From assembly GCA_016871855.1 (NCBI GenBank), contig VHBQ01000030.1, positions 1 to 35,446 on the forward strand: a DNA stretch of 35,446 nt, read 5' to 3'. The notes beneath the pieces were generated by a model. That model saw only the letters and a list, made by a program, of their open reading frames with translations. It ran no database searches and was not told the DNA's origin. Position numbers and translations under genes: made by a program. Source of the DNA: Gemmatimonadota bacterium (GTDB lineage: Bacteria > Gemmatimonadota > Gemmatimonadetes > Gemmatimonadales > Gemmatimonadaceae). Shown one piece after another: positions 858-27,710 of this stretch (position 1 is the stretch's first letter; every line of letters starts with the position of its first letter).

Positions 858-930
858 GCGGCGGTAACTGATACCGCGAAGGGCGAAGGGCACGAAGGGG
901 CACGAAGGACTGCAACTTCTTGAGGTGAAG

Positions 931-966
931 ACAGCGCGCCACGCAGCTGAATGCGTGGCGCGCTGT
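931..966 (+). terminator. Perfect 15-bp hairpin downstream of sdhB
   Basis: ACAGCGCGCCACGCA pairs exactly with 952-966 across a 6-nt loop. It lies 73 nt after the sdhB stop, inside the larger repeat palindrome. No run of T follows, so it may act as a 3' stabiliser or a non-canonical terminator. Confidence 0.45.
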
Positions 967-1042
967 CGTTCCCCCCAGGTTTCCTTCGCGTCCCTTCGTG
1001 CCCTTCGCACCTTCGTGGTAGCAGGTCGTGAACCCCGCCCGC

Positions 1043-1071
1043 TAGCGAACTCCAGCGCTCTACCGCAAAAT
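1043..1071 (+). promoter_or_regulatory. Candidate promoter for the S9 peptidase gene, within repeat copy 1
   Basis: TAGCGA (1043-1048) and CAAAAT (1066-1071) are separated by exactly 17 nt. Repeat copy 2 has TGGCGA-17-CAAAAT and copy 3 has TGGCAG-17-CAAAAT, in both cases pointing at the next gene. The -10-like hexamer is reasonable but the -35 match to TTGACA is poor, so this is an inference from spacing and conservation. The predicted start near 1078 would leave a leader of about 40 nt. Confidence 0.4.
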
Positions 1072-1118
1072 CGGGGGCCACCACCAGACCGTTGCCACCC
1101 CCCACGGAGATGGATCCG

Positions 1119-3203
1119 ATGCGCCTGTGCCGGCTTGTCGCCTTGCTCGCCTTCCCGCTCACGCTTCAATCGCAGGGCGAGATCCCCATCGAGACCCTGA
1201 TGTCGGCGCCGTACCCGGGCGGGATGTCGGCCGCGCCGAGCGGCGGACTCGTCGCCTGGGTGCTGAACGACCGCGGCGTGCGCAACGTGTGGGTCGCGGC
1301 GCCGCCCGATTACAAGGGGCGCCAACTCACCCAGTACAGCAAGGCCGACGGGCAGGAGATCGGCGGGCTCGTCTGGTCCAAGGACGCGGGCACGCTGTAC
1401 TACTCGCGCGGTTCCGCGCCCAATCGCGCGGGCGAGATCGCGAATCCGACCAGCGACCCGGCGGGCGCCGAGCAAACGACGTGGCGGATTGCGGTCGCGG
1501 GCGGCTCACCGACGAGAGTCAGCGCTGGCAGCTCGATGACCATGTCGCCTGACGGGGCCACAATGGCTTTCGTGCGACGCGGGACCATCTGGACCGCGCC
1601 GGTCGCTGAGGGCGGCACGCCGATGCAGGTCGCCACGATCCGCGGATCGATCGGCGCGCTCTCCTGGTCGCCGGACGGCACGCGACTGCTCTTCGCGTCC
1701 AACCGCGGCACGCACGCCTTCATCGGCGTGCTGCACCTTGCGAACAAGTCCGTCACCTGGATGGCGCCAAGCGTAGACACCGATGAGTCGCCGGTCTGGT
1801 CGCCAGACGGAAAGCAGGTGGCCTTTCTGCGAGAGGCGACGACCACCAAACGCCTGATCTTCACGCCCGATCGTCGTGGCGAGCCGTTCTCGATCCTTGT
1901 GGCTGACGCTTCGACGGGGAAGGGGCGCGTCGTTTTCCGCGCCGACACGGGACGCGGCTCCATCCACCGCGAGATCGTCGGGGCGCAGCTCACGTGGGCC
2001 GCCGGCGACCGGCTGGTATTCGCCTGGGAGAAGACAGGGTGGACGTCACTGTACTCAGTGCCGGTTACAGGCGGACCTGCAAAGCTGCTGACGCCCGGCG
2101 AGTTCGAGGTGGAGTATGTGACCGTCACGCCCGACCGTCGTGAGATCGTCTACAACTCCAACCAGGGTGACATCGACCGCCGTGACATCTGGCGCGTGCC
2201 GGTGGATGGGAGCGCGCTGCCGCGCGCCGTCACGAGCGGCGCGGACATCGAGTGGCAGCCCGCGGTGACGAGCGATGGCGGCGCGATCGCCCTGCTCAAG
2301 TCGGGGCCGCGCGTGCCAGCGCACGCCGCGATCATCGTGGCTGCCGCTCCCGCGCGCGAACTTGCGCCGGGGACGATTCCTGCCGACTTCCCGATCGCGA
2401 AGATCGTGGATCCCCAGCCGGTGATCATCACCTCCACCGACGGGATGCGCATCCACGCGCAGCTCTTCCTCCCCGCAGGGGCAAAGCCGGGCGACAAGCG
2501 CCCTGCCGCGATCTTCTTCCACGGCGGCTCCAAGCGGCAAATGCTCCTGGGCTGGAACTACTCCAGCTACTACGCGAACGCGTACGCGATGAACCAGCAT
2601 CTCGCATCCAAGGGATACGTAGTGCTGTCGGTCAACTACCGGAGCGGCATTGGCTACGGAATGGAGTTTCGCGAGGCGCTCAACTACGGCGCTTCTGGTG
2701 GCGCGGAGTACCAGGACGTGATGGCAGCCGGGATGTACCTCGCGGCGCGCCCCGACGTGGATCCCAAGAAGGTCGCCCTCTGGGGCGGCTCGTACGGCGG
2801 CTACCTCACCGCGATGGGGCTCTCGCGCGCCTCCGACCTGTTCGCCGCCGGCGTGGACATCCACGGCGTACACGACTGGAATGTGGGCATCAAGAACTTC
2901 GTCCCGTCGTACAACCCGCTGGAGAACCCCGAGCGCACGCGGCGCGCGTTCAATGCCTCGCCGATGGCGACGGTGGATGGATGGCGCTCCCCGGTGCTCG
3001 TGATCCACGGCGACGACGACCGCAACGTGCAGTTCGTGGAGACCGTCACGCTGGTCGAGGCGCTCCGCGACCGCGGCGTGGAGGTGGAGCAGTTGATCTT
3101 CCCCGATGAGATCCACGGCTTCCTTCGCTGGGACCGTTGGGTCGAAGTCTTCAAGGCGTCGGCCGACTTCCTCGACCGCAGGCTGGGAGTGCGCAAGCCA
3201 TGA
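1119..3203 (+). CDS. Secreted S9 family (prolyl oligopeptidase/acylaminoacyl-peptidase type) serine peptidase
   Basis: This 694-residue protein begins with a probable Sec signal peptide (MRLCRLVALLAFPLTLQSQG). Residues of roughly 25-410 contain TolB/PD40-like beta-propeller repeats (WSPDGTRLLFASNRG, WSPDGKQVAFLR). The C-terminal alpha/beta-hydrolase domain has nucleophile S558 in GGSYGG, D634 in HGDDDRNV and H666 in DEIHGF, the S9 triad order. The ATG at 1119 is preferred because GGAG lies about 10 nt upstream and it gives a clean signal peptide; ATG 1110 is an alternative. It should cleave oligopeptides in the periplasm or outside the cell. The stop overlaps the next start (ATGA), so the TPR gene is cotranslated. 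The precise substrate is unknown. Confidence 0.9.
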   Translation: MRLCRLVALLAFPLTLQSQGEIPIETLMSAPYPGGMSAAPSGGLVAWVLNDRGVRNVWVAAPPDYKGRQLTQYSKADGQEIGGLVWSKDAGTLYYSRGSAPNRAGEIANPTSDPAGAEQTTWRIAVAGGSPTRVSAGSSMTMSPDGATMAFVRRGTIWTAPVAEGGTPMQVATIRGSIGALSWSPDGTRLLFASNRGTHAFIGVLHLANKSVTWMAPSVDTDESPVWSPDGKQVAFLREATTTKRLIFTPDRRGEPFSILVADASTGKGRVVFRADTGRGSIHREIVGAQLTWAAGDRLVFAWEKTGWTSLYSVPVTGGPAKLLTPGEFEVEYVTVTPDRREIVYNSNQGDIDRRDIWRVPVDGSALPRAVTSGADIEWQPAVTSDGGAIALLKSGPRVPAHAAIIVAAAPARELAPGTIPADFPIAKIVDPQPVIITSTDGMRIHAQLFLPAGAKPGDKRPAAIFFHGGSKRQMLLGWNYSSYYANAYAMNQHLASKGYVVLSVNYRSGIGYGMEFREALNYGASGGAEYQDVMAAGMYLAARPDVDPKKVALWGGSYGGYLTAMGLSRASDLFAAGVDIHGVHDWNVGIKNFVPSYNPLENPERTRRAFNASPMATVDGWRSPVLVIHGDDDRNVQFVETVTLVEALRDRGVEVEQLIFPDEIHGFLRWDRWVEVFKASADFLDRRLGVRKP

Positions 3204-4165
3204 GACCGTCCTATCGCTGGGCCTTGCCCGCCATCGTTGCCGCGACGTGTGCCGGGACGCCAAGCGCGTCAGCGCAGGCGCCGTTCACGCCGGATCGTGT
3301 TGACGTGCAGGCCATCTCTTTGCTCGGTGACACCCTGCGCACGTTGCCGCTCTCGGCGGCGACGCGGGCGCGGTATGACGCGCAGCTCGCCGAGGCGCGC
3401 CGGGCGTATGAGCACGCCCCGACGAACCTCGACTCGCTGATCTGGTACGGACGCCGGCTCGCGTACCTTGGGAAGCTCCGCGAGTCCATCGCCGTCTACA
3501 CACACGGCCTTACGCTCTTCCCGGACAACCCGTGGCTGCTGCGGCATCGGGGGCATCGTTACATCTCGGTGCGCGAGATCGATCGGGCGGTGAAGGACCT
3601 CGAGCGCGCGACTGTGGTGGTGGAGGGGAAGCCCGACATCGTCGAGCCCGATGGCCAGCCCAACCCCGCGGGCGTTCCGATCGGCACGTTGCATTCAAAC
3701 ATCGGCTATCACCTCGCGCTCGCGTACTACCTGCGCAGCGATTGGGAGAAGGCCGCGGCCGTCGCGCGCAAGGAAGTGGCGGCGGCGACCAACGACGACC
3801 GTCGGGTCTCGATGGCGCATTGGCTGTACATGTCGCTGCGCCGCGCGGGGCGCGACGCCGAGGCGGCGAAGGCGATCGAGCCGTTCCGGCGGTCGCTGAC
3901 CATCGTGGAGAACCAGTCGTACGAGCGCCTGATGCACCTGTACCTCGGCGCCCTCGGGGCGGACAGCGCCGCCGCGAGGGCCGCCGGCCAGATGTCGTCG
4001 AGCGACGCGTCGGTGGCCTACGGCGTGGCCAACTGGCACTTCTACAATGGCCGGCGCGAGCAGGCGGTGAAGCTGTTCGAGGCGCTCGTGGCCGGCGGAC
4101 AGTGGGGGGCGTTCGGGGCGATCGCGGCGGAGGCGGACGTGGCGCGGTTGCGCGGGAGGCGCTGA
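3200..4165 (+). CDS. Exported tetratricopeptide-repeat protein
   Basis: This 321-residue protein starts with a signal peptide (MRPSYRWALPAIVAATCAG..., likely cut at SASA|QA near residue 25). The remainder is helical with TPR-like segments, for example the stretch around LIWYGRRLAYLGKLRESIAVY and the following LFPDNPWLLRHRGHR, then LALAYYLRSDWEKAAAVARKE. The start ATG overlaps the peptidase stop by ATGA, so the two are probably made together. TPR proteins usually scaffold protein contacts; a role in holding or feeding the S9 peptidase is only a guess. No catalytic motif was seen. Confidence 0.75.
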   Translation: MRPSYRWALPAIVAATCAGTPSASAQAPFTPDRVDVQAISLLGDTLRTLPLSAATRARYDAQLAEARRAYEHAPTNLDSLIWYGRRLAYLGKLRESIAVYTHGLTLFPDNPWLLRHRGHRYISVREIDRAVKDLERATVVVEGKPDIVEPDGQPNPAGVPIGTLHSNIGYHLALAYYLRSDWEKAAAVARKEVAAATNDDRRVSMAHWLYMSLRRAGRDAEAAKAIEPFRRSLTIVENQSYERLMHLYLGALGADSAAARAAGQMSSSDASVAYGVANWHFYNGRREQAVKLFEALVAGGQWGAFGAIAAEADVARLRGRR

Positions 4166-4205
4166 GGGCGGGCCAATCGACGAAACGCGGGCGTCGCTGG
4201 GCGGG

Positions 4206-4211
4206 TATTAT
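4206..4211 (+). promoter_or_regulatory. Possible -10 element upstream of the serpin gene
   Basis: TATTAT stands out in a GC-rich 64-nt gap, but no good -35 is present at 16-18 nt and the implied start would fall on the Shine-Dalgarno. It is listed as a weak candidate only. Confidence 0.2.
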
Positions 4212-4229
4212 GGGTATGAGGAGCATCCC

Positions 4230-5498
4230 ATGAGACCCGCCCAGTCCCGCATACCGATCCTGGTGGCAGCGTTCGCCGTCGTGGCCTGCGCGTCATCGCC
4301 CACCGAAGCGCCGTCCTCGAAGCAGCCAGCGGTGCTCACGGCGCTGCCGCGTCCGCTCACGGCGAGCGAAGTGAAGGTCCGCGATGCCGTCAACGCCTTC
4401 GCCTTCGCATTGTGGGGACGGGTGAATACCGCGCAGCGCGACACGAGTGTCTTCCTGTCGCCGCTGAGCGCCTCGTTCGCGCTGGGGATGGCGCTGAACG
4501 GCGCCGCTGGGACGACTGCCGACCAGATGCGCTCGGCGCTGCAGTTCGGCAACGCGACGCTCCCCGAGATCAACGCCGGCTACAAATCACTGATCGCGCT
4601 GCTCACGTCGCTCGATCCATCGGTGCAGATGCGCATCGCCAACTCCATCTGGTACCGACAGGGCTTCCCGTTCCGGCAGGCGTTCTTTGACACGACGCGC
4701 ACGTACTTCGACGCGACGGTGCAGGGGCTCGACTTCGCCAATCAGGCCGCGGCGCTGGCCGCGATCAACGGCTGGGTGAACGAGAAGACGAGCGGGAAGA
4801 TCCCAAAGGTGCTCGACACCATCACCGCCCAGCAGGTGATGTTCCTGATCAACGCCATCTACTTCAAGGGCTCGTGGCGGACGAAGTTTGACCCTGCCAA
4901 GACGGCCGCGGGGTCGTTCACGCCCGCGAAGGGCGGCGCGCAGACGGCGCAGATGATGCACCGCCTGGACAGTCTGTCGTACGCCGAGGGGACGAACTAC
5001 CAGGCGGCGGAGCTGCCGTACGGCAACACGGCGTTCAGCATGGTCGTGCTGCTTCCGAAGAGCGGGACCGACGTCGAGAGCTTCGTGGGATCGCTCACGC
5101 CGGGGGCGTGGCAGGGGATCATTGCTGGTTTGCGGGTCCAGAAGGTGGACTTCGCGATGCCCAAGTTCACGCTTGCGTACGAGCGAAAGTTGAACGACGA
5201 CCTGCGCGCGCTGGGCATGGTAACGCCGTTCGTGCCTGGCGGCGCCGACTTCACCCAGATGGCACCCGCTCCGACCGGCTACGAACTGTTTCTGGAATTC
5301 GTGAAGCAGAACAGCTTCGTGGACGTGAACGAAGAGGGGACGGAGGCGGCCGCGGTGACGGTGGTGGGAGTCGGGGTGACGTCGCTGCCGTCCTATCCCG
5401 TGATGCGCGTGGACCGGCCGTTCCTGTTCGTGCTGCGCGAGCGGCACACCGGGACGGTGCTGTTCATGGGGAAGATCGCGCGGCTGCCGACGGCATAG
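4230..5498 (+). CDS. Lipoprotein serpin (serine protease inhibitor, I4 family)
   Basis: This 422-residue protein has an N-terminal hydrophobic segment ending in AVVAC, a plausible lipobox with C20 as the lipidated residue, followed by a Ser/Pro-rich linker. The serpin fold is shown by FLSPLSASFALGMALNGA near the N-terminal part, NAIYFKGSW in the middle and the C-terminal RPFLFVLRERHTGTVLFMGK. The reactive-centre hinge EEGTEAAAVTVV (from residue 368) has the small residues expected of an inhibitory serpin. Counting 17 residues puts P1 near T384-S385, but that is approximate. It is probably anchored in the outer membrane and traps serine or cysteine proteases. GAGGAGC lies just before the ATG. 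It follows the S9 peptidase and TPR genes by 64 nt. Confidence 0.92.
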   Translation: MRPAQSRIPILVAAFAVVACASSPTEAPSSKQPAVLTALPRPLTASEVKVRDAVNAFAFALWGRVNTAQRDTSVFLSPLSASFALGMALNGAAGTTADQMRSALQFGNATLPEINAGYKSLIALLTSLDPSVQMRIANSIWYRQGFPFRQAFFDTTRTYFDATVQGLDFANQAAALAAINGWVNEKTSGKIPKVLDTITAQQVMFLINAIYFKGSWRTKFDPAKTAAGSFTPAKGGAQTAQMMHRLDSLSYAEGTNYQAAELPYGNTAFSMVVLLPKSGTDVESFVGSLTPGAWQGIIAGLRVQKVDFAMPKFTLAYERKLNDDLRALGMVTPFVPGGADFTQMAPAPTGYELFLEFVKQNSFVDVNEEGTEAAAVTVVGVGVTSLPSYPVMRVDRPFLFVLRERHTGTVLFMGKIARLPTA

Positions 5499-5520
5499 GC
5501 CGCGTGGCACGGGGCGCGGT

Positions 5521-5539
5521 GGTGGCGCCGACGCCCACC
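5521..5539. terminator. Weak hairpin between convergent serpin and NTF2-like genes
   Basis: GGTGGCG (5521-5527) can pair with CGCCCACC (5532-5539) with a one-base bulge and a 4-nt loop. It sits in the 51-nt convergent gap and could serve both strands. There is no T-tract. Confidence 0.25.
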
Positions 5540-5549
5540 CGTCCTGCCG

Positions 5550-6065
5550 TCAGGGCCTCGGCGGGCCGTCCGGGTGTGGCTTGCACGCTGGTGGTTGCTC
5601 CACCGTGTAGAAGAGCGACGCCACCTTCCAGGCGCCGTTGATCTTGAGGAGCGTGAAGGCGTCCACGCCGCAGTGCGACCATTTGCCGTCGCGGTAGAGG
5701 TCGTACGGCATCCAGACGAGCGCGAGCCGATCCTGCACCTGCGCGGTTGGGGCAAAGCCGCGCTCCGAAAAACTCGACGTCCCCAGGCGCGCGATGTCGC
5801 TCGCCCACGAGCGGATGGAGACACGCTCGGCGCCATTTCGCATCGCCGAGACACCCACGATGGAGGAATCGGCGGTGAGGCGATGCAGCGTTGCCGTGTC
5901 GCCCGCCGAGAGTGCGCGGAGCAGGGAATCGGCGACGGCGATCGCGGCGGCTCCTTCGCCGCCCTTCGTCGGCGCTTGCGCCTTAGCAGTGGGTGCCGCC
6001 ACCCCGGCGACCGCCAGCGCGATCAGGGCACGGCAAGCGAGCCGGCGGCGGCCGATGTCAGGCAC
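5550..6065 (-). CDS. Exported SnoaL/NTF2-like protein of unknown function
   Basis: This 171-residue protein has a signal peptide (arginine-rich start, then ALIALAVAGVAAPTAKA, cut near AKA|QA). The mature part resembles the SnoaL/DUF4440/lumazine-binding group of the NTF2-like fold: an early helix AIAVADSLLRALSAGDTATLHRL, then the end DAFTLLKINGAWKVASLFYTVE. No catalytic residues can be assigned. The GTG start lies immediately after the dcd stop with no intervening base, so translation is probably coupled to dcd even though one product is exported and the other cytosolic. The ligand is unknown. Confidence 0.7.
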   Translation of the reverse strand: MPDIGRRRLACRALIALAVAGVAAPTAKAQAPTKGGEGAAAIAVADSLLRALSAGDTATLHRLTADSSIVGVSAMRNGAERVSIRSWASDIARLGTSSFSERGFAPTAQVQDRLALVWMPYDLYRDGKWSHCGVDAFTLLKINGAWKVASLFYTVEQPPACKPHPDGPPRP

Positions 6066-6620
6066 CTAGATCTTCGGCAGCGTCACGCCCACCTGACCCT
6101 GATACTTCCCCTTCTTGTCCTTGTAGCTCGTCACCGGCGGCTCGTTGCCACGGAAGAAGAGCACCTGCGCGATGCCTTCGTTGGCGTAGATGCGGGCGGG
6201 GAGGGGGGTGGTATTCGAGATCTCGAGGGTCACGTAACCCTCCCACTCGGGCTCGAAGGGCGTGACGTTGGTGATGATCCCGCAGCGGGCATAGGTGCTC
6301 TTGCCCACGGTGATGGTCATCACGTCGCGCGGAATGCGGAAGTACTCGACACTGCGCGCCAGGGCGAACGAGTTGGGCGGGACGATGCAGACATCGCCCT
6401 CGTACTCGACGAAGCTCTTGGGATCGAACGCCTTGGGGTCGACCACCGAGTTCAGCACGTTCGTGAAGATCTTGAACTCGCGCGCCACCCGCATGTCATA
6501 GCCGTACGCGCTGACCCCGTACGAGATGACACCCGACCGGACCTGGGAGTTCTCGAACGGTTCGATCATGCCGTGCTGCGTGGCCATCTCGATGATCCAG
6601 CGGTCGTTCATGATGCTCAT
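6066..6620 (-). CDS. dcd: dCTP deaminase
   Basis: This 184-residue protein deaminates dCTP to dUTP in the cytosol, feeding thymidylate synthesis; some relatives also have dUTPase activity. The N terminus ([19 protein letters not shown]) and the core [19 protein letters not shown] followed by [11 protein letters not shown] are diagnostic. E133 matches the catalytic glutamate, with S108 and R112 in the nucleotide-binding motif. Start ATG 6620 is chosen from family N termini; ATG 6611 is also possible, and neither has a clear Shine-Dalgarno. An open frame continues upstream into the repeat but the family does not support that extension. The gene diverges from nuoA and is followed directly by the NTF2-like gene. 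Confidence 0.95.
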
Positions 6621-6665
6621 GGGGCGCGTCGGGGCTGAGGGTCGTGGGGTGGCCGGCCAGCGGTC

Positions 6666-6876
6666 GCCCCCGATTTTGGGAGGCCGCGCTGGAATTCGCC
6701 AGCGGGCGAGGGTCCTGAACATCTAACACGAAGGTACATAGGGCGCGAAGGGGCGCGAAGGAACTTCGGGGGAACCGCGCACCGTAATGCTGAGCGGCGC
6801 GGGGCGCGCGGTCGTTACCATCAAGGTTTCTTCGCGCCCCAGCGTGCCCTTCGATCCTTCGCGGTATCAGTGGCCG
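6666..6876 (-). repeat. Intergenic palindromic repeat, copy 2 (inverted)
   Basis: On the minus strand this matches copy 1 nearly end to end. It has the CGGTATCAG-type end (6860-6876), CGAAGG arms (6727-6762 and 6830-6863), a central GC-rich stem (6774-6780 with 6806-6812) and the tail ending at CAAAATCGGGGGC (6678 to 6666). The central sequence differs from copy 1 while the arms and tail are conserved. It occupies about half of the 448-nt dcd/nuoA divergent region. The rest (6877-7068) holds the probable nuo promoter and leader and no other feature that was recognised. Confidence 0.8.
6673..6701 (-). promoter_or_regulatory. Candidate dcd promoter within repeat copy 2
   Basis: Read on the minus strand, TGGCGA (6701-6696) and CAAAAT (6678-6673) are 17 nt apart, the same arrangement as in copies 1 and 3. 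The predicted start near 6666 gives a leader of about 45 nt to the dcd ATG. The -35 match is weak, so support comes from conservation between copies. Confidence 0.4.
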
Positions 6877-6988
6877 TTCCCAGCCCCTGCGCTCCGCACG
6901 CATGGGCCGGAGGTCACGTCAGGCGACGCACCCGAATCCCCGACAACCGTTCGGGTTATCCCTGATGCGCCTTCTATAGAGATCTGCG

Positions 6989-7018
6989 TTGACACCCCTC
7001 GCGCACGACCTCTACTTT
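6989..7018 (+). promoter_or_regulatory. Candidate promoter of the nuo operon
   Basis: A perfect TTGACA (6989-6994) is followed after 18 nt by TACTTT (7013-7018), which keeps the T, A and final T of the -10 consensus. The predicted start near 7025 would give a leader of about 45 nt. A TATAGA at 6975-6980 is an alternative -10 without a convincing -35. Confidence 0.5.
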
Positions 7019-7044
7019 TCCGTGTTGTTCAACGCTCGTGAATT

Positions 7045-7066
7045 CCTTCACGAAGGCGGACCTTCG
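7045..7066 (+). promoter_or_regulatory. nuoA ribosome-binding site inside alternative hairpins
   Basis: The GAAGG that serves as the nuoA Shine-Dalgarno (7052-7056) can pair upstream with CCTTC (7045-7049) or downstream with CCTTCG (7061-7066, stem CGAAGG/CCTTCG, 4-nt loop). Either would hide it. Whether these short stems matter in the cell is unknown. Confidence 0.3.
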
Positions 7067-7068
7067 GC

Positions 7069-7473
7069 ATGGATCGCAACTACATACCCGTCCTCTTCCT
7101 GCTGGCCATCGCTGTCGTGACGGCGATCGCCATCATCGGGCTCTCGCAACTCGTGATGCGTTTCCGGCCCGCGCCGGTCAAGCAGCAGGCCTACGAGTCC
7201 GGCATGCCGCCGCTGGGCGACGCCCGCGAGCGGTTCTCGGTGAAATTCTACATGGTCGCGATGCTCTTCATCGTGTTCGACATCGAAACCGTGTTCATGA
7301 TCCCGTGGGCGGCGTACTATCGCCAGCTCTCCTGCGCCGTGCCGCTCATCAACGGCGTCTGCCCCGCGGGCCAGGTCTCGTTCTTCGGCCTCGGCGAGAT
7401 GCTCGTCTTCATGGCGATCCTCTTCGCCGGCTTCATCTACATCTGGAAGAAGGGAGCCCTCCAATGGGATTGA
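7069..7473 (+). CDS. nuoA: NADH-quinone oxidoreductase subunit A
   Basis: This 134-residue membrane subunit of complex I has three predicted transmembrane helices (about residues 5-27, 61-84 and 102-125). The loop between the first two carries the conserved [20 protein letters not shown] segment, and [10 protein letters not shown] marks the second helix; both are hallmarks of NuoA/ND3, which sits near the quinone site. GAAGGCGG precedes the ATG by about 10 nt. It is the first gene of the 14-gene nuo operon and its 3' end overlaps nuoB by 10 nt. Confidence 0.96.
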
Positions 7474-8087
7474 CTGACGCACCCGCCCCGGGGGTCGTGT
7501 CGCTCGACGCGGGTCAGGGCGATGGGTGGATCACCACCCGCCTCGACTTCCTTGTGAACTGGGGGCGCGCCAACTCGCTGTGGCCGATGCCGTTCGGCAC
7601 CGCGTGCTGCGCCATCGAGTTCATGGCCAGCGCCGCCTCCAAGTTCGACCTCGCGCGCTTCGGGATGGAGCGCATGGGATTCTCGCCCCGCCAGGCTGAC
7701 GTCCTGATCTGCGCGGGGCGCGTTCCGTTCAAGCTGGCCCCGGTCCTGCGCCGCATCTGGCAGCAGATGCCCCAGCCGAAGTGGTCTATCTCAATGGGGG
7801 CCTGCGCCTCCACGGGCGGAATGTTCGACACCTACGCCGTCACGCAGGGGATCGACACGATCATCCCGGTGGACGTGTACGTCCCCGGCTGCCCGCCGCG
7901 CCCGGAGGCGCTCATCCACGCCATCATGATGCTCCAGAAGAAGGTCATGAAGGAGCGGATGTCGGCGACGCCGCGCGACGAGATGGTGCCGGATCCCGCC
8001 AGCCAGCTCTACATCCCGCCGTCGCGCATCGACAAGCTCTCCGAGGCGTTCGGCAACTCCGTCCCACAGACGCGGAGCGGACAGTGA
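7464..8087 (+). CDS. nuoB: NADH-quinone oxidoreductase subunit B (N2 cluster)
   Basis: This 207-residue peripheral subunit holds the terminal cluster N2, which reduces quinone. Ligands are the tandem C48-C49 in [12 protein letters not shown]114 in [11 protein letters not shown] and C143 in [12 protein letters not shown]. The ATG at 7464 lies inside the end of nuoA in another frame, implying coupling. A short charged C-terminal tail follows the conserved domain. The stop overlaps the nuoC GTG start. Confidence 0.97.
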
Positions 8088-8779: not shown

Positions 8780-8782
8780 CCG

Positions 8783-10641: not shown

Positions 10642-10685
10642 GAGAAACAACAGAGAGACAACAGAGAAACAACAGAGAGACAACA
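10642..10685 (+). repeat. Perfect 22-bp tandem duplication in the nuoE-nuoF gap
   Basis: Positions 10642-10663 and 10664-10685 are identical and rich in GAGA and AACAACAG. They start right after the nuoE stop. The composition (no T) contrasts with the surrounding genes. No coding potential is seen. Confidence 0.9.
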
Positions 10686-10706
10686 GTACTTCTTCGGGCC
10701 GGTCTG

Positions 10707-10733
10707 CCGTCTACCGTCCACCGTCTACCGTCT
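10707..10733 (+). repeat. CCGTCYA heptamer repeat before nuoF
   Basis: Almost four copies of a 7-nt unit (CCGTCTA, CCGTCCA, CCGTCTA, CCGTCT) end 6 nt before the nuoF ATG. nuoF has no Shine-Dalgarno. A shorter version stands before fabG at 31941-31960. Confidence 0.8.
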
Positions 10734-10739
10734 GATTCA

Positions 10740-15352: not shown

Positions 15353-15356
<4 letters not shown>
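14859..15356 (+). CDS. nuoI: NADH-quinone oxidoreductase subunit I (2x 4Fe-4S)
   Basis: This 165-residue ferredoxin-like subunit carries clusters N6a and N6b between NuoG and NuoB. Ligands are C69, C72, C75 and C79 (CVACGLCPTVCP) and C108, C111, C114 and C118 (CIFCGYCQEVCP), with the usual swap of the last cysteine between clusters. The amphipathic N-terminal part (ATFKGLALTFKHL) is the expected membrane-facing helix. The ATG overlaps the last base of the nuoH stop. Confidence 0.97.
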
Positions 15357-15914
<558 letters not shown>

Positions 15915-15925
<11 letters not shown>

Positions 15926-18412: not shown

Positions 18413-18415
18413 CCC

Positions 18416-19999: not shown

Positions 20000-21514
20000 A
20001 TGACCTTCGACCTCGCGAACCCGTCGCAGTTGATGCAGGCCCTCGGGCCGGACCTGCTGCTCATTGTGGGGGCCATGGCGCTCATGCTCTGGGCTGCCTG
20101 GCGTCCGGAATCAGACGAGCACCAGCGCGCTGTCGGCGTCGCGTCGCTCGCCCTGATCGTCGCTACGATTGGCCTCACGATCTGGTACGCGGCGCGCGGC
20201 CTGTCCTCCGGCCCCGGCATCATCGCCGTGGACAACTTCCGGTGGGCGGCCAACATCGTCTGCTTGCTAGGCGCCTTCGGCGCGATTGCCCTGGGGCTGG
20301 AGTACAACGTCCGTGAGCGCATCCGCCCCGCCGAGTCGCATGTGCTGGTGCTGTTCGCCACGGCCGGCATGATGATGCTCGCCGCCGCGCGCGACCTCAT
20401 GATCGTCTTCCTCGGCGTCGAGCTGATGTCAGTGGCGGTCTATGTGCTCGCCGGTCTCAACCGGCGCAGCAACAAGGCGGCCGAAGGCTCGCTGAAGTAC
20501 TTCCTGCTGGGCGCGTTCGCCACCGCCTTCCTGCTTTACGGGATCGCGCTGATCTTCGGCTCCACCGGGTCCACGAACCTGACGGAGATCGGCCAGCGCA
20601 TCGTGGAGGGCAACTACGTCGCGCATCCGATGGCTCTGGTCGGCACGGCCCTGCTCCTGATCGGCTTCGGGTTCAAGGTGGCAGCCGCGCCGTTCCACAT
20701 GTGGGCGCCCGACGTGTACGAGGGGGCCCCGACACCGATTACGGCGTTCATGGCGACCGCCGTGAAGGCGGCCGCGTTCACGACGTTCATCCGCGTCTGG
20801 CTCGAGGCGCTCCCCGGGATGGGCGAGGCCTGGTTCGCCCCGGTCTGGTGGCTGGCCGCCGTCGCAATGTTTGTCGGCAACACGGTGGCGCTCTCCCAGC
20901 GCAACCTGAAGCGCCTGCTCGCGTACTCGTCGATCGCGCACTCGGGCTATCTGCTCGTCGCCGTCGCGACCGGCACGCTCGCCGGCTCGGCCGCGTTCCT
21001 ATTCTACATCGTCGCCTACACGCTGGCCTCGTTTGGCGCGTTCGCCGTCGTCATCGCCGTGGGCTCGGAAGGGGACGGAAACAACGAGCTATCCGACTAC
21101 GAGGGGCTCTGGCACGTCCGGCCGGGACTCGCCGCGGCGATGAGCGTGTTCATGCTCTCGCTGATGGGCTTCCCGATCTTCGGCGGCGTTGGGTTCTTCG
21201 GAAAGTGGTACCTGCTGATGGCGGCCATCGAGGCGCCGCGGCCGCTGACCACGCTGGCGGTGGTCCTGGTGCTCACCTCGGTCATCTCCGCGGGCTACTA
21301 TCTCAACGTGGTGCGCGTGATGTTCATGAAGGCGCGCCCTGAGGGCGCCATCACGCCGGTGCGCGCGGGCCCGCTCACGCGCGGGGTCGTGTTCGCCACC
21401 GCGGTCGTCATCCTCGTGCTCGGTCTGGTGCCGTCACGCGTCATCGGATGGAGCCGGGCCAGCATACCCAGGGCGCCCGTCGCGCAAACGGCATCCGCCG
21501 ACCTGCCCAAGTGA
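20000..21514 (+). CDS. nuoN: NADH-quinone oxidoreductase subunit N
   Basis: This 504-residue antiporter-like subunit is the last gene of the operon. IVFLGVELMSVAVYVLAG carries the helix-5 glutamate, and GFKVAAAPFHMWAPDVYEGA the helix-7 lysine. RLLAYSSIAHSGYLLVA is the usual later motif. The ATG follows the nuoM stop without a gap. A strong hairpin lies 7 nt after the stop, marking the probable operon end. Confidence 0.97.
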   Translation: MTFDLANPSQLMQALGPDLLLIVGAMALMLWAAWRPESDEHQRAVGVASLALIVATIGLTIWYAARGLSSGPGIIAVDNFRWAANIVCLLGAFGAIALGLEYNVRERIRPAESHVLVLFATAGMMMLAAARDLMIVFLGVELMSVAVYVLAGLNRRSNKAAEGSLKYFLLGAFATAFLLYGIALIFGSTGSTNLTEIGQRIVEGNYVAHPMALVGTALLLIGFGFKVAAAPFHMWAPDVYEGAPTPITAFMATAVKAAAFTTFIRVWLEALPGMGEAWFAPVWWLAAVAMFVGNTVALSQRNLKRLLAYSSIAHSGYLLVAVATGTLAGSAAFLFYIVAYTLASFGAFAVVIAVGSEGDGNNELSDYEGLWHVRPGLAAAMSVFMLSLMGFPIFGGVGFFGKWYLLMAAIEAPRPLTTLAVVLVLTSVISAGYYLNVVRVMFMKARPEGAITPVRAGPLTRGVVFATAVVILVLGLVPSRVIGWSRASIPRAPVAQTASADLPK

Positions 21515-21521
21515 CCCGACG

Positions 21522-21548
21522 CAACGCCTCGCCCTCCGCGAGGCGTTG
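21522..21548 (+). terminator. Strong hairpin after nuoN
   Basis: CAACGCCTCGC (21522-21532) pairs perfectly with GCGAGGCGTTG (21538-21548) across a 5-nt loop. It starts 7 nt after the nuoN stop and is the best terminator-like stem in the window. No U-tract follows. Confidence 0.65.
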
Positions 21549-21595
21549 ACGTCTCGGGGGCACTAAGTTTCAGCGCACTCACTTACCACACTGCC

Positions 21596-22960
21596 ATGAT
21601 CAACGCCGGCATCTTTCGCCAATACGACATCCGGGGCGTGGTCGGAGACGACCTCACCATCGAAGCGGCCGAGGGGATCGGTCGCGGGTACGCTGCCATC
21701 CTCGCCGAGCGCGGCATCACCGGCGCAATCGCCGTGGGGCGTGACAATCGCCACAGCGGCGCCTCGCTCCGCGACGCCCTCGTCAAGGGGCTCACCGACT
21801 GCGGGGTGGATGTCGTGGACATCGGCGTCGCGCCGACGCCGGTGCTTTACTGGAGCCTGCACCACTGCGGCGTGGTCGGCGGCATTCAGGTGACCGGCTC
21901 CCACAACCCGCCGGAGTTCAACGGGTTCAAGCTCAGCGTCGGCGCGACCTCGCTCCACGGCGACGGCATTCAGCGGCTGTACCAGCTCATTCCGACAGCG
22001 AAGAACGCCGCGAAGCCGGGCACGGTGCGCTCCGTGGCCGTGCTCGACGACTATGTGGCCGACATCGCGAAGCATATCGGCCGGATCAAGCGCCCGCTCA
22101 AGGTCGTGGTGGATTGCGGCAACGGCGTGGGGGCGCTGACGGCGCCAAGCGTCTGCAAGGCGCTCGGGGTCGAGGCCTCGCTGCTCTTCGCCGAGAGCGA
22201 CGGCAACTTCCCCAACCATCATCCCGACCCGACGGTGGTCGAGAACCTCCAGGACCTTATTCGCGAAGTGCGGCGGACGGGCGCGGAGGTGGGAATCGGG
22301 TTCGACGGCGACGCCGACCGCATCGGCATCGTGGACGAGGCGGGGAACATCATCTGGGGCGACTACCTGCTGCTGCTCTACGCGCGCGACGTCCTCGAGC
22401 GCACCGGAAAGGGCCAGTCGATCATCTTCGACGTGAAATGCTCGCAGGCGCTCCCCGACGCCATCCGCAAGGCCGGCGGCGAGCCGCTGATGTGGAAGAC
22501 CGGGCATTCGCTCATCAAGGAGAAGATGAAGGAACTGCACGCGCCGATCGCCGGCGAGATGTCCGGCCACATGTTCTTCACGGAGGGGTTCTACGGCCAC
22601 GACGACGCGGTGTATGCGGCCGCGCGGTTGATGCGCATCCTCGGGGACAGCGGCAAGCGCGTGGATGAACTGCTGGCCGACGTGCCGCGCTTCGTCAGCA
22701 CGCCGGAACTGCGCGTGGACTGCCCGGACGACCGCAAGTTCGACATCGTGAAGGCCGCGCAGGTCCATTTTGCGGCGCAGCGCGAGGTCATCGCCGTGGA
22801 CGGGGCGCGCATCCTGTTCGGAGACGGCTGGGGGCTGATTCGCGCCTCCAACACCCAGCCCATTCTCGTGATGCGGTTCGAAGCGCTGACCGAGGCCCGG
22901 CTGGCCGAGATTCGGAGCGAGGTTGAAGGGTGGCTCCGAATCCAGGGCGTGGAGTCGTAG
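21596..22960 (+). CDS. Phosphomannomutase/phosphoglucomutase
   Basis: This 454-residue cytosolic alpha-D-phosphohexomutase interconverts hexose 6- and 1-phosphates for sugar nucleotide and surface polysaccharide synthesis. The catalytic phosphoserine S102 is in TGSHNPPEFNG. The metal site is D237, D239 and D241 in FDGDADRIG, the sugar-binding loop is GEMSGH (320-325), and the phosphate-binding loop is RASNTQP (416-422). These match the bifunctional PMM/PGM (AlgC/ManB-like) group rather than GlmM, which has a different serine loop. Whether mannose or glucose phosphate is preferred cannot be told. It has an 81-nt upstream gap after the nuo terminator. Confidence 0.93.
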   Translation: MINAGIFRQYDIRGVVGDDLTIEAAEGIGRGYAAILAERGITGAIAVGRDNRHSGASLRDALVKGLTDCGVDVVDIGVAPTPVLYWSLHHCGVVGGIQVTGSHNPPEFNGFKLSVGATSLHGDGIQRLYQLIPTAKNAAKPGTVRSVAVLDDYVADIAKHIGRIKRPLKVVVDCGNGVGALTAPSVCKALGVEASLLFAESDGNFPNHHPDPTVVENLQDLIREVRRTGAEVGIGFDGDADRIGIVDEAGNIIWGDYLLLLYARDVLERTGKGQSIIFDVKCSQALPDAIRKAGGEPLMWKTGHSLIKEKMKELHAPIAGEMSGHMFFTEGFYGHDDAVYAAARLMRILGDSGKRVDELLADVPRFVSTPELRVDCPDDRKFDIVKAAQVHFAAQREVIAVDGARILFGDGWGLIRASNTQPILVMRFEALTEARLAEIRSEVEGWLRIQGVES

Positions 22961-22961
22961 C

Positions 22962-25406
22962 GTGACCTGGCGGCGGGCCCTCGCGCTGGCCGGCGCGACG
23001 CTCGCCGTCGCGCTGGTCGTCGGGCGCCTGCTTGCCGGCGCGTACGCTGAACACGCGTGGTACGAAGCGCTCGGGGCCGAGGCGCTGTGGCGCGCTCGCG
23101 CGGGGACGCTGACGGTGATGCGCTCGGTGGGCTTCGCCGTGGCGTTTGCCTTCGCGTTCGCGAACCTGCTCGGCATGCGGCGGTCCATCGTCTCGCTGGT
23201 GCTGCCGCGGCGGGTGGCGAATCTGCATTTCGGCGAGGTGGTGCCAGGGCGCGCGCTCACGCTGACCGCGGCCGTGCTCAGCGTGCTGATCGCCGCCGCC
23301 GTCGCTCTCCCACAAGGCGACTGGTTGACGGTGGTGCGGGCCCGCTGGGCGACACCCGTGGGCGAGATCGACCCGTATCTCGGCCATGACATCGCCTTCT
23401 GGACAGCGTGGCTCCCGTTCGAGCGTATGCTCCGCGACTGGGCCGTCGTGCTGGCGAGCGTCGTCGGCGTCGTCGTGATGCTGCTCTACGCGCTGACGCC
23501 GTCGGTGCAGGTGCAGAGCGGACGCCTCCACGTCTCGACGTGGGTGCGGCGGCACTTCGCGATCTACTCTGGAATCCTGCTGCTCCTCGTCGCGTGGGGA
23601 TTCCGCATCGATGGTCTGGACCTGCTGCTGCGCGGGAGCGGTGAGGGCGAGCGCTTCACGTCGTTCGACCATCGGGTGCTCCACCCGTATTTGGTGGCGC
23701 TGAGCATCGGCACCGCGGGCGTCGGCGTGCTCGTGGCGTGGGCTGGATGGGTCGGGCAGCAGCGGGCGATGCTCGGGGCGCTCCTGATCGCGCTCGTCGC
23801 CGGCCCCGCAGGGCGCGTGGGCCTTCCGCTGCTCGACCGCCGCGCGGCGAATGCGCGCGAGGCCGTGCTGCTCGAGCGTCCCTACGATCTGGTCAGGACG
23901 CTCTACACGCGCCGGGCGTTCGCGGTGGAGGAGATCGTGCGCGGCGCCGCGGCGGAGAGCGTGCGCGTGCCGGCGGTGAGCATTCCGCGCCGCGTGAGCG
24001 GATGGGATCCAGCGGCACTCGCACTCGCTGCCGAGGACGATGCGTCGACCCCGCCGGTGCCGGGGGCCGTCGCGTGGAGCGCGGCAGGTGGCGATTCGCT
24101 TCGCGTTCTGGTCTCCCACGCCGCCCTCGGCGCTGACGCGCCGTTGACGCCGCTCGAGGTTCTGGAGCTCGATCCGGCCGACGCGGACGACCGAGGCGAC
24201 CCGTGGCCCAGTGTGGGGAGCGCCCACGCGACTTTGCCGCCGCTCGTCGTCGGGCTTGGCGTGGATCCGGTGCGCGTGATGCCGGACACTCTCGGCCGCA
24301 TTGCCGCGCCGCACCTCGGCGACGGATGGCGCCGCGTGGCGCTTGCGTGGGGCGTGCGCCGCCCGCGCTTGGCGGTCACGCCGGCGGACTCGCGCCAGGC
24401 GAAGCTGCTGGTGCGGCGTGAGGTCCGAGGGCGCATCCGTGCCCTGGTGCCGTTCCTTGCCATGGGCCCCACGACGCAGGCGTTCGTGGCCCGCGATTCC
24501 CTCTGGTGGAGCGTGGAGATGTTCCACGCCGGCGCCGATTTCCCATTGTCCGAGCGCATGCCCTTCGCCGGCCTGTCGCGCCGGTTTGTGATCGCTGCCG
24601 GACTCGCGGTGGTCAACGCCCATAGCGGGCGCGTGCTGGTAGTGGTGCCGCGGCATCCCGAGCGCATGACGCAGTGGTGGCGCAATCGACTGCCGCAGCT
24701 CTTCGTCACGAGCGACCGATTGGACGCGGAGCTGTTGGACGCGCTGCCGCCTCCGGTTGACCGCGCGAGGATGCAGGGAACGGCGCTTGGTCGCACCGGG
24801 TTCCGCAACGACACGCTCTCCGTGCGCCCGCTCTTTCAGGTGGACGAGGCCGACGCCGAACTGCTGCCGGGTCCCCCGACCCCGTTCGTCAGCGGCCTCT
24901 CTCGCGGGCCGCGCGCAGCGGGCGTGCCGGCGGTCGATGGGACGGATCGCGTGCGAGGCGCGTTCGTCGCGGTCGGAGGGGCGGCCCCGCGCACGATGCT
25001 CGTGGAGCAGCCGGACACCCTGCGCTGGTCGGCGATCCTGGACCGGCTGCAGCGCGTCGCGGATTCGGCCCAGCTCAGCCGCACGCGGCGTCACCCGCGA
25101 CGCGGGCGCGTGCAGACGATCCCGACTGACTCCGGGCTCCTGGCCGTGCAGGGTTTCTACTCGTGGTCGCCGGAGCGTCCCCCGACGATGACCGGCGTGG
25201 TCGCCTTGCTGGCGGGCAGCGCACGCTCGGGCCCTTCGTTGTCTGCCGCCTTCGGTTCTGCCCCGCACCTGCCCATCACCGACGCGCGACTGCGCCTGCG
25301 CATCGCGCGCATCCACGCCGCGATGCAGGATGCACTGCGTCGCGCGGACTGGGCCGCCTTCGGGCGCGCAATGGCCGAACTGCGCCGGCTTTCAAGCGAT
25401 CGCTGA
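22962..25406 (+). CDS. UPF0182 (COG1615) family membrane protein, divergent
   Basis: This 814-residue protein has seven predicted transmembrane segments in the first 290 residues (about 4-28, 55-72, 97-117, 158-177, 195-213, 243-262 and 266-288). A soluble domain of more than 500 residues follows. This topology and local features (AWYEALGAEALW after helix 1, EIDPYLGHDIAFWTAWLPFE, and RPYDLVRTLYTRRAFAVEEI after helix 7) fit UPF0182, whose biochemical role is unknown. The GTG at 22962 is chosen because GGAG lies 7 nt upstream and it begins 2 nt after the mutase stop. The soluble half is Ala/Arg/Pro-rich and poorly conserved by eye. The assignment is from pattern memory. Confidence 0.7.
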   Translation: MTWRRALALAGATLAVALVVGRLLAGAYAEHAWYEALGAEALWRARAGTLTVMRSVGFAVAFAFAFANLLGMRRSIVSLVLPRRVANLHFGEVVPGRALTLTAAVLSVLIAAAVALPQGDWLTVVRARWATPVGEIDPYLGHDIAFWTAWLPFERMLRDWAVVLASVVGVVVMLLYALTPSVQVQSGRLHVSTWVRRHFAIYSGILLLLVAWGFRIDGLDLLLRGSGEGERFTSFDHRVLHPYLVALSIGTAGVGVLVAWAGWVGQQRAMLGALLIALVAGPAGRVGLPLLDRRAANAREAVLLERPYDLVRTLYTRRAFAVEEIVRGAAAESVRVPAVSIPRRVSGWDPAALALAAEDDASTPPVPGAVAWSAAGGDSLRVLVSHAALGADAPLTPLEVLELDPADADDRGDPWPSVGSAHATLPPLVVGLGVDPVRVMPDTLGRIAAPHLGDGWRRVALAWGVRRPRLAVTPADSRQAKLLVRREVRGRIRALVPFLAMGPTTQAFVARDSLWWSVEMFHAGADFPLSERMPFAGLSRRFVIAAGLAVVNAHSGRVLVVVPRHPERMTQWWRNRLPQLFVTSDRLDAELLDALPPPVDRARMQGTALGRTGFRNDTLSVRPLFQVDEADAELLPGPPTPFVSGLSRGPRAAGVPAVDGTDRVRGAFVAVGGAAPRTMLVEQPDTLRWSAILDRLQRVADSAQLSRTRRHPRRGRVQTIPTDSGLLAVQGFYSWSPERPPTMTGVVALLAGSARSGPSLSAAFGSAPHLPITDARLRLRIARIHAAMQDALRRADWAAFGRAMAELRRLSSDR

Positions 25407-25460
25407 CCGCACCGCCGGGGAAGCTCGCCGACAACGGCATCGGGTGAACCCTGAGCGTCA

Positions 25461-25482
25461 ATGGGAGGTCTCCGGCTCCCAT
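25461..25482 (+). terminator. Hairpin downstream of the UPF0182 gene
   Basis: ATGGGAG (25461-25467) pairs with CTCCCAT (25476-25482) across an 8-nt loop, 54 nt after the stop and 83 nt before sucC. A pyrimidine stretch follows. It is a plausible but modest terminator. Confidence 0.35.
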
Positions 25483-25565
25483 CTCTCCGCGCATGGCGGT
25501 AAATTCGGCGTGTTGCGCTGCGACTGGCGCCGCACGGCGCCGCGAACATCTCGATCGGAGTACCT

Positions 25566-26711
25566 GTGAACATCCACGAATACCAGGCGAAGGAGATCCT
25601 GCGCGGATTCGGCGTGCCGATTCCGGCCGGCAAGGTTGCCACGACGCCTGCGGAAGCAGAGGCCATCGCGAAGGAGTTCGGCGTGGCGGTGATGGTGAAG
25701 GCGCAGGTGCACGCCGGCGGCCGCGGGAAGGCGGGCGGCGTGAAGTTCTGCAAGACGCCCGCCGAAGCGAAGGAGAAGGCCACCGCCATTCTCGGCATGC
25801 AGATCAAAGGCCTGACGGTCGAGAAGGTGCTCGTGACCGTCGCCGCCGACATCGGCAGCGAAGCGTATGTGGGCATCATCGTTGACCGGGCCCGCAAGAA
25901 GCCGGTCTTCATGGTCTCGGCCGCCGGCGGCATCGACATTGAGCAGGTGGCGGCGCAGACGCCGGAGAAGATCCTCTACCTGCCGGTGGATACCCGGTAT
26001 GGGCTGCGTGGCTATGAAGCCATGCGCATGGGGTTCTTTCTGTACAGCGACGTGAAGCTCGCCAAGCAGGCGGCGAAGATCATGCAGCAGCTCTACCGGG
26101 CCTTCATGGCGAGCGGCTGCTCGCTTGCCGAGATCAATCCGCTGGTCGCCACCCCCGCCGGGGAGCTGATCGCCGTGGACGGCAAGATGGTCATTGACGA
26201 CAACGAGCTTGACCGCCATGCCGAGATCGAGGCGCTCCGCGACGTGTCGTCGGAAGCGCCGTCGGAGGTGGACGCTCGCAACTGCAACCTCACGTTCATC
26301 AAGCTGGACGGCAACGTCGGCTGCGTCGTCAACGGCGCCGGCCTGGCGATGGCCACCATGGATCTCGTGAAGTACTACGGCGGCGAGCCGGCGAACTTCC
26401 TCGACATCGGCGGATCATCGAACCCCGAGAAGGTGGTGAACGCGCTGCGCATCATCACCGCCGACCCGAACGTGAAGTGCATCCTGTTCAACATCTTTGG
26501 CGGCATCACGCGCACCGATGACGTGGCCAACGGCATCGTCACCGCCACCAAGGCGAACCCGCTGCAGGTGCCGATCGTGATTCGCCTCACCGGCACTAAC
26601 GAGGAGATCGCCGTGAAGATCCTCACCGAGAACGGCTTCACGGCGTCGGCCGACATGGACGAGGCCGTCATCAAGGCCGTCGAGCTGGCGAAGGGAGGGA
26701 AGGCCGCGTGA
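25566..26711 (+). CDS. sucC: Succinyl-CoA synthetase (ADP-forming) beta subunit
   Basis: This 381-residue protein with SucD converts succinyl-CoA, phosphate and NDP to succinate, CoA and NTP in the TCA cycle. The N-terminal ATP-grasp domain has [17 protein letters not shown] (44-60), and E189-I-N191 with [11 protein letters not shown] provides Mg-nucleotide ligands. The C-terminal flavodoxin-like domain contains [17 protein letters not shown] (from 308), which binds near the phosphohistidine. The start is GTG with GGAG 5 nt upstream. ADP versus GDP preference cannot be decided. It overlaps sucD by GTGA. Confidence 0.97.
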
Positions 26712-27580
26712 GTATCTTCATCAATAACGACACCAAGCTGGTGGTGCAGGGGATCACCGGGCGCGACGGCTCGTTCCACACCAAGCAGGCCATCGAGTAC
26801 GGCACGAAGGTCGTGGCCGGCGTCACGCCCGGAAAGGGCGGCCAGACGTTCGAGGGCCAGGTCCCCATCTTCAACACGGTGTACGACGCGGTCGCTGCGA
26901 CCGGCGCCAACACCAGCGTGATCTACGTGCCGCCGATGGGCGCCGCGGACGCGATCATGGAAGCCGTGGACGCTGGCGTGCAGACGGTGGTCTGCATCAC
27001 GGAGGGCGTACCCGTGCTCGACATGACGAAGGTCTACCCCTTCGTGAAGGAGCGCGGCGTGCGTTTGGTCGGCCCCAACTGCCCGGGCGTCATTTCGCCG
27101 GGGCAGGCCAAGGTCGGCATCATCCCGGGGCGCATCTGCATTCCCGGCCCTGTCGGCGTCGTGAGCCGCTCGGGGACGCTGACCTATGAAGTCGTCTACC
27201 AGCTCACCCGTGCCGGCATCGGCCAGACCACCTGCGTCGGCATCGGCGGCGACCCGATCAACGGCACGAACTTCATCGACTGCCTCGAGGCGTTTGAGAA
27301 GGACCCGGCCACCAAGGCCGTGGCGATGATGGGCGAAATCGGTGGCACGGATGAGCAGGAGGCCGCGAAGTTCGTGAAGGAACGCATGACCAAGCCGGTC
27401 GTGGGCTTCATCGCGGGCCAGACGGCGCCGCCGGGGCGTCGCATGGGGCACGCGGGCGCAATCATCTCCGGGTCGGCAGGCACGGCGGCGGAGAAGATCG
27501 AGGCGTTCAAGGCCGCGGGCATCGCCGTGGCCGTGCGCCCGATGGACTTCGTGGAGCACATCAAGGCGGGGCTGAAGTAA
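26708..27580 (+). CDS. sucD: Succinyl-CoA synthetase alpha subunit
   Basis: This 290-residue subunit carries the CoA-binding Rossmann domain ([20 protein letters not shown] near the N terminus) and the phosphorylated histidine H248 in [35 protein letters not shown] and [14 protein letters not shown] are further signatures. The GTG start overlaps the sucC stop, ensuring equal expression. Repeat copy 3 follows 12 nt after the stop. Confidence 0.97.
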
Positions 27581-27592
27581 GGCCTCCGGCCA

Positions 27593-27710
27593 ACGCGAAG
27601 GGCGAAGGACGCGAAGGGGCGCGAAGGGGTGGTGTCATACCCCCCTTCGTTGCCCTTCGCGCCCTTCTATCTTTGTGGTGGCAGATCCCTCAACTGAACC
27701 CCAAAATTCA
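27593..27710 (+). repeat. Intergenic palindromic repeat, copy 3 (short form)
   Basis: The left arm (27594-27630) has CGAAGGGCGAAGGACGCGAAGG-type units and the right arm (27641-27678) the complementary CCTTCG units. The tail runs to AACCCCAAAATTC. Compared with copies 1 and 2 it lacks the large central stem and about 30 nt of tail. It fills the sucD-ndk gap. Confidence 0.75.
27679..27707 (+). promoter_or_regulatory. Candidate ndk promoter at the end of repeat copy 3
   Basis: TGGCAG (27679-27684) and CAAAAT (27702-27707) are 17 nt apart, as in the other two copies. The predicted start (about 27713-27715) falls almost on the ndk ATG at 27717, so the mRNA would be nearly leaderless. ndk has no Shine-Dalgarno, which agrees. 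Confidence 0.4.

What the first reader, a model, noticed from the sequence alone, without database searches (positions are those of the whole stretch)
862..27710. Three-copy intergenic element that pairs a CGAAGG palindrome with an outward promoter-like end
Copies at 862-1078 (+), 6666-6876 (-) and 27593-27710 (+) share CGAAGG-unit arms in inverted order and a tail. In all three, a T(A/G)GC.. hexamer lies exactly 17 nt before CAAAAT. The tail always faces the following gene start (S9 peptidase, dcd, ndk), and copies 1 and 3 directly follow the ends of sdhB and sucD. This would make a portable terminator-plus-promoter cassette. The arms and tail are conserved while the centres differ, as expected of structured selection or of a non-autonomous mobile repeat. 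CGAAGG-type intergenic repeats are recalled from other phyla, but the attached promoter-like tail is an inference here.
Basis: partly seen in the sequence, partly recalled or inferred. Interest (0 to 1): 0.72.

Follow-up and report, generated by a model that had tools for sequence, protein, structure and literature searches.

The report
Gene-end hairpin repeat, not promoter cassette
The three stretches belong to a family of hairpin-shaped DNA repeats, dozens per genome, that sit mostly just behind the ends of genes, and the promoter-like tail is a neighbour of two copies rather than part of the repeat.

Summary
The three stretches are real, but they are three of at least 44 places in this genome. 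The family is a near-palindrome of about 160 bp: outer ACCACGAAGG or ACCACGGAGG arms around an inner GGGGGAACGAC-AGCGCGCCACGC hairpin. The promoter-like tail is not part of it: searched alone it is shared only by copies 1 and 2, and no such tail was seen in 82 flanks of the other 41 copies. Copy 3's CAAAAT occurs in 1 of 11 genus genomes at that site, this one. Over 102 copies in five congeneric genomes, elements lie between convergent genes (41) or in tandem gaps (41), rarely between divergent genes (5); 15 are at contig edges. In tandem gaps 35 of 41 lie nearer the preceding stop codon. Copy 2 is in a divergent gap, so it ends no gene. Sense-strand G-U and A-C mismatches are equal, 121 to 120, so nothing points to RNA-hairpin selection. 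Best reading: a REP/BIME-like dispersed palindrome tolerated at gene ends; copies 1 and 2 share a tail because an upstream region was carried along once. The arm units recur in many phyla; my searches found no description of them.

The parts
863..1024 (+). Copy 1: full-length palindromic repeat (CGAAGG type), 5 nt after sdhB
   Evidence: best match elsewhere in the genome is G000:C92:115-275, 83%
930..967 (.). Inner hairpin GACAGCGCGCCACGCA-loop-TGCGTGGCGCGCTGTC, conserved over the family
   Evidence: consensus
1025..1082 (+). Tail of copy 1; not part of the repeat; upstream region of the S9 peptidase gene, weakly aligned with the repeat-free S9 upstream region of congener G002
1043..1071 (+). 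Promoter-like TAGCGA-17-CAAAAT
   Evidence: function not tested
6721..6871 (-). Copy 2: degenerate palindromic repeat in the divergent gap between dcd and nuoA
   Evidence: closest copy in the genome is copy 1 (score 140, next 131)
6662..6720 (-). Tail of copy 2, similar to the tail of copy 1; contains TGGCGA-17-CAAAAT (6701-6673)
27589..27685 (+). Copy 3: short, old palindromic repeat between sucD and ndk; a palindrome is present at this site in 11 of 11 genus genomes examined
27668..27675 (+). TATCTTTG inside the right arm of copy 3; TATCTTT is in 5 of 11 genus genomes at this site; a more plausible ndk promoter box than CAAAAT
   Evidence: function not tested
27679..27707 (+). TGGCAG-17-CAAAAT; CAAAAT in 1 of 11 genus genomes at this site (this one)

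Best explanation
A genus-rich, non-autonomous, dispersed palindromic repeat that works like REP/BIME elements. Shown: many copies, a long near-palindrome, modular parts (outer ACCACGRAGG unit arms, inner hairpin), strong concentration just after stop codons and between convergent genes, no shared tail in the copies found, patchy presence among relatives. Inferred: copies spread at the DNA level by an unidentified mobiliser or by recombination between copies, and persist where they do least harm, at gene ends; once transcribed, the hairpin can incidentally protect or define the mRNA 3' end. The promoter-like tail belongs to the neighbouring gene. Copy 1 stands before the S9 gene's own upstream region. 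Copy 2 was probably made together with that region, which brought an S9-like upstream region to dcd. Copy 3 is an old resident whose right arm overlaps the likely ndk promoter.
For: Copy number and palindromy. Position: 41 convergent, 41 tandem, 5 divergent, 15 at contig edges; copy-free gaps of 60 nt or more in the same stretches 9, 65, 35 (chi-square p 8e-11); in tandem gaps the median is 11 nt after the upstream stop against 72 nt before the next start, nearer the stop in 35 of 41. Tail only at copies 1 and 2; best tail-like score in 82 flanks of the other 41 copies is 32, against 71 between the two tails. The dcd tail of this genome matches the S9 upstream region of G002 (38; reached by 0 of 300 shuffles) and none of 7 congeners' dcd upstream regions (closest 33, reached by 27 of 300), so S9 is the likelier source. 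Copy 1 is the closest copy to copy 2. No unit-bearing palindrome upstream of dcd in the four congeners that keep nuoA beside it, G001, G003, G004, G009. Patchiness: 26 of 298 genomes of the phylum have 10 or more CACGGAG pairs, up to 216, against 3 of 298 for the reversed control (counted by hand). An identical 123-bp contig-end sequence is joined to three copies at the same internal place. G-U 121 against A-C 120 on the sense strand argues for DNA-level rather than RNA-level upkeep.
Against: No excess of target duplications in 17 G000 copies with both ends recognised; one 9-nt match, in a tandem array. No mobiliser found: one Y1 transposase in the genome, with a stop, and none in G001, about 99% complete with 26 matches. 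A palindrome at sucD-ndk in 11 of 11 genus genomes suggests some copies are kept for a function. Arms of the CGAAG type match their own partner better than permuted partners in G000 (p 0.0008) and G009 (0.0046), though not in G007 or in three CGGAG sets. The G-U/A-C test had no usable positive control (12 to 10 in 23 other hairpins). S9 as source of the tail rests on one congener: the S9 upstream regions of G001, G005, G006 and G009 do not match the dcd tail, and the S9 tail itself matches G002 only weakly (30, reached by 2 of 300).
Confidence: 0.72

Rival explanations
1. A bidirectional 3'-end signal: the palindrome is selected as a transcription terminator or mRNA-stabilising hairpin for the gene or genes that end beside it.
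For: 41 of 87 classifiable copies lie between convergent genes, and copies in tandem gaps sit a median 11 nt after the upstream stop. Very stable hairpins. A palindrome at sucD-ndk in 11 of 11 genus genomes, with units of differing spelling. PMC13289151 (passages) describes E. coli REPs as hairpins that stabilise RNA 3' ends without terminating.
Against: Sense-strand G-U equals A-C, 121 to 120. TTTT within 8-100 nt of the centre in only 16 of 114 sense arms; no terminator match around copy 1. Copy 2 lies in a divergent gap. At sdhB only 2 of 10 genus genomes examined (G000, G009) carry a unit-bearing palindrome above the shuffled maximum.
Confidence: 0.3
2. The reader's portable terminator-plus-promoter cassette.
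For: Copies 1 and 2 share repeat and tail; CAAAAT is rare and occurs upstream of 3 genes of 157 against 0 on the antisense strand, the 3 being these copies.
Against: Tail absent from the other places found; elements are scarce in divergent gaps; CAAAAT not kept at ndk (1 of 11); copy 2 follows no gene end.
Confidence: 0.06
3. A MITE: terminal inverted repeats moved by a DDE or Y1 transposase encoded elsewhere.
For: Inverted termini AACTGATACCACGAAG/CTTCGTGGTATCAGTT; patchy distribution.
Against: No excess of target duplications; Y1 genes in 2 of 11 genus genomes, without arrays of the units beside them; 2 of 114 cross-phylum loci have a Y1 gene in the fetched stretch. DDE transposases were not searched.
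Confidence: 0.25

Closest known systems
REP/BIME elements (repetitive extragenic palindromes)
   Same: many extragenic palindromic copies, gene-end preference, apparent use as insertion sites by an IS-like element (inferred)
   Different: about 160 bp with repeated 8-9-nt units in each arm instead of 20-40 bp; no GTAG or CGTC end tag in the consensus; no RAYT neighbour
REPINs with RAYT, and TIR elements with TIRYT (PMC3733652, section 16 read)
   Same: non-autonomous palindromes, modular
   Different: no arrays of the units beside the two Y1 genes found in the genus; G001 has no Y1 match at all
MITEs
   Same: inverted termini, no coding capacity seen, patchy
   Different: no excess of target duplications, parent transposase unknown
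Intrinsic terminators
   Same: GC-rich hairpin just after stop codons
   Different: no T-run found, much longer, present at only some gene ends

Membership tests
REP/BIME | many extragenic palindromic copies per genome | tested here: met
   44 places plus a CGGAGG form
REP/BIME | 20-40 bp unit with GTAG or CGTC tag (PMC3733652, abstract passage and section 16) | tested here: not met
   about 160 bp; the 37-copy consensus shows no such tag at its ends (by inspection)
REP/BIME | 3'-end location | tested here: met
REPIN/RAYT or TIRYT system | Y1 tyrosine transposase beside the repeat | tested here: not met
   2 of 114 cross-phylum loci (home-made profile)
MITE | terminal inverted repeats | tested here: met
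MITE | target-site duplication | tested here: not met
   17 of 44 G000 copies had both ends recognised; no excess, one 9-nt match in a tandem array
MITE | related autonomous element | not tested
   only PF01797 was searched
Intrinsic terminator | stem followed by a T-run | tested here: not met
Terminator-plus-promoter cassette | promoter tail travelling with the repeat | tested here: not met
   tail at 2 places only
Terminator-plus-promoter cassette | transcription start after CAAAAT | not testable with these tools
   needs Cappable-seq

The most novel reading that the evidence does not exclude
ACCACGRAGG-unit hairpins form one repeat superfamily that crosses bacterial phyla. The same 8-9-nt arm units are combined with lineage-specific ends and inner hairpins, the unit spelling (CGAAGG, CGGAGG, CAAAGG) changes together in both arms, and no known REP transposase moves them. 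This is unlike classical REPs, whose motifs are reported to have relatively low similarity across genomes (section heading in PMC12306157).
Probability: 0.3. Interest if true: 0.72.

Novelty: new variant of a known kind. Interest (0 to 1): 0.45.

Why it matters
It replaces a tempting promoter-cassette story with a measurable one: a large palindromic repeat family concentrated at gene ends. If the arm units shared across phyla reflect common descent or a common mobiliser, a widespread class of bacterial repeats lacks a described mechanism. The comparison of G-U with A-C mismatches gives a simple test to separate DNA-level from RNA-level upkeep in other repeats, once it has a positive control.

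Tried and rejected
Rfam scan of the window at gathering scores: no match. RAYT as mobiliser: not supported in this genus. Target duplications: no excess. RNA-structure selection by mismatch asymmetry: not seen, but the control hairpins were uninformative. Arm co-variation: own arms fit better than permuted ones in two of six sets (G000 CGAAG, G009 CGAAG), not in G007 or the three CGGAG sets, where G001's own arms fit worse than permuted ones (84.0 to 94.7); a left arm fits some other copy's right arm at least as well as its own in most cases (own best in 9 of 85 over five genomes), so subfamily structure can explain it. Paper searches for the unit strings and for Gemmatimonadetes or Gemmatimonadota with repeat terms showed no description of the family in what they listed; one search listed 25 of 1,079 papers and one search listed 8 of 110; only openly licensed PMC papers are held. 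Papers: PMC3733652, passages and section 16; PMC12306157, abstract, outline and passages; PMC13289151, passages; all others, search listing only.

Full report
What is there. The window is contig C30 of a 2,986,908-base draft genome (159 contigs, 85.6% complete). Pfam supports the neighbours' names: Fe-S protein of the SdhB kind, S9 peptidase, dCTP deaminase-like, NADH oxidoreductase chain 3, succinyl-CoA ligase, NDK. The three stretches exist and fold well beyond shuffles.

The family. Copy 1 as a query gave 81 matches on both strands of its own genome, which I merge to 43 places; copy 3 is not in that list and makes 44. Both strands match because the core is a near-palindrome. The 37-copy consensus runs from GGCAACTG..ACCACG.AG units through GGGG.AACGACAGCGCGCCACGC, a short loop, and back. 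Two spellings coexist: of 43 copies with palindrome score 40 or more, 23 have CGAAG as the commonest unit in both arms, 17 CGGAG in both, 3 are mixed. CACGGAG pairs occur 72+63 times in the genome, reversed control 0+2 (100 of 135 listed), so 44 is a lower bound.

The tail. Searched alone, 1025-1090 matches itself, copy 2 at 79% over 53 bp, and a 14-base hit. Copies 1 and 2 align through the tail to near the start codons (score 78, shuffled maximum 43). In 82 flanks of the other 41 copies the best tail-like score is 32, against 71 between the two tails. G002 has no repeat behind sdhB but shares CGCAgAATCGGG upstream of S9. The dcd tail of this genome matches that S9 region of G002 (38; 0 of 300 shuffles reach it) and none of the dcd upstream regions of 7 congeners (scores 17 to 33). 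The simplest history is that the tail was S9's own upstream region and reached dcd with the repeat. Against it: the S9 tail of this genome matches G002 less well (30, reached by 2 of 300), and the S9 regions of G001, G005, G006 and G009 do not match the dcd tail. Copy 1 is the closest copy to copy 2, narrowly (140 against 131). The direction is an inference.

Copy 3. It is distant from all other copies (best 62, self 194) but has counterparts at the same site: 11 of 11 genus genomes have a palindrome between sucD and ndk above the maximum of 30 shuffles, G005 barely (30 to 29); G011, of another genus, has a 34-base gap without one. Units differ between species: CGAAGG, CACAAAGG, CACGGAGG. CAAAAT is in 1 of 11, this genome, and TATCTTT in 5 of 11. 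In the fetched stretches of five genomes TATCTT lies upstream of 8 of 157 genes in sense against 0 antisense, CAAAAT 3 against 0. I recall a Bacteroidetes promoter box TAnnTTTG; no paper on it was read. The eight-species fold has 19 pairs, 2 with changes on both sides.

Gene context. With a gene finder of my own, trained on this genome, 44 copies of G000 and 58 places in G001, G006, G007 and G009 gave 41 convergent, 41 tandem, 5 divergent and 15 at contig edges. Not used here: one further place in G009 (C86:53849) and the places listed for G002, G005, G010 and G024. Copy-free gaps of 60 nt or more in the same stretches were 9, 65 and 35. The stretches were chosen because they hold copies, so the background is not a random sample. 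In tandem gaps 35 of 41 lie nearer the upstream stop. This is the opposite of a promoter cassette.

RNA or DNA. Arms were aligned with symmetric scoring. In 38 of 41 tandem copies (score 40 or more) the sense strand shows 121 G-U and 120 A-C mismatches. Selection for an RNA hairpin should favour G-U. Other gene-end hairpins were too perfect to act as a positive control (12 to 10 in 23). T-runs are scarce (TTTT in 16 of 114 sense arms).

Movement. No excess of target duplications in 17 copies. A Y1 transposase match is found in 2 of 11 genus genomes, in G006 at a contig end, with no array of the units beside either. Three contig ends carry an identical 123-bp sequence joined to an element at the same place; I read this as an IS that targets the repeat, as described for ISPpu9 in Pseudomonas putida REPs (PMC8450116, abstract in listing). 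A collapsed repeat of another kind would look the same.

Reach. With C92:115-281 as query, 9 of 60 genomes matched, the own genome included: 8 of the 11 of genus g1, and a weak one (G024) outside it. CACGAAGGNCACGAAGG is in 26 of 298 genomes of the phylum, the reversed control in 5. Paired CACGGAG is in 120 of 298, many with one or two matches, which the reversed control also shows; 10 or more matches are in 26 genomes (up to 216) against 3 for the control (counted by hand). The inner hairpin recurs in another genus, g19 (L377, by eye). About 7 matches would be expected in 257 billion bases of even composition (my arithmetic). An opposite-facing unit lies within 250 bases in 42 of 123 hits, with no chance control run; a few hits look coding (by eye).

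Verdict. A REP/BIME-like repeat family with unusual arms; the promoter tail is local. Calling it a REP in the strict tagged sense or a RAYT-moved REPIN fails the tests made here; working like a REP at gene ends remains likely.

Noticed in passing
G000 contig ends: L066 1-123, L078 1-123, L072 4287-4409: An identical 123-bp sequence joined to three CGAAGG elements at the same internal position; probably the end of an unassembled multi-copy IS that targets the repeat.
   Followed up: partly
L064 about 79-99, L081 about 494-514: A second near-identical contig-end sequence lies beside two other copies of the repeat.
   Followed up: no
window 7035-7055: CTTCGTGAA..TTCACGAG palindrome upstream of nuoA; a like palindrome was found in 9 of 9 relatives' loci examined; looks like a Rex-type operator (recalled).
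   Followed up: partly
L071 and L072, gene 3' ends: Another hairpin family built from CGGTGGA units at gene ends of the same genome.
   Followed up: no
G176 and G081 (genome search handles): The reversed control patterns themselves are numerous there (16+20 and 23+20 in G176, 10+16 in G081), hinting at further unit-built repeats.
   Followed up: no
L033 501-875 (-): The genome's only Y1 transposase match carries one TAG inside the matched stretch; a small gene pair beside it (1020-1280 and 1267-1497) looks like a RelE-type toxin and its antitoxin (recalled, not tested).
   Followed up: no
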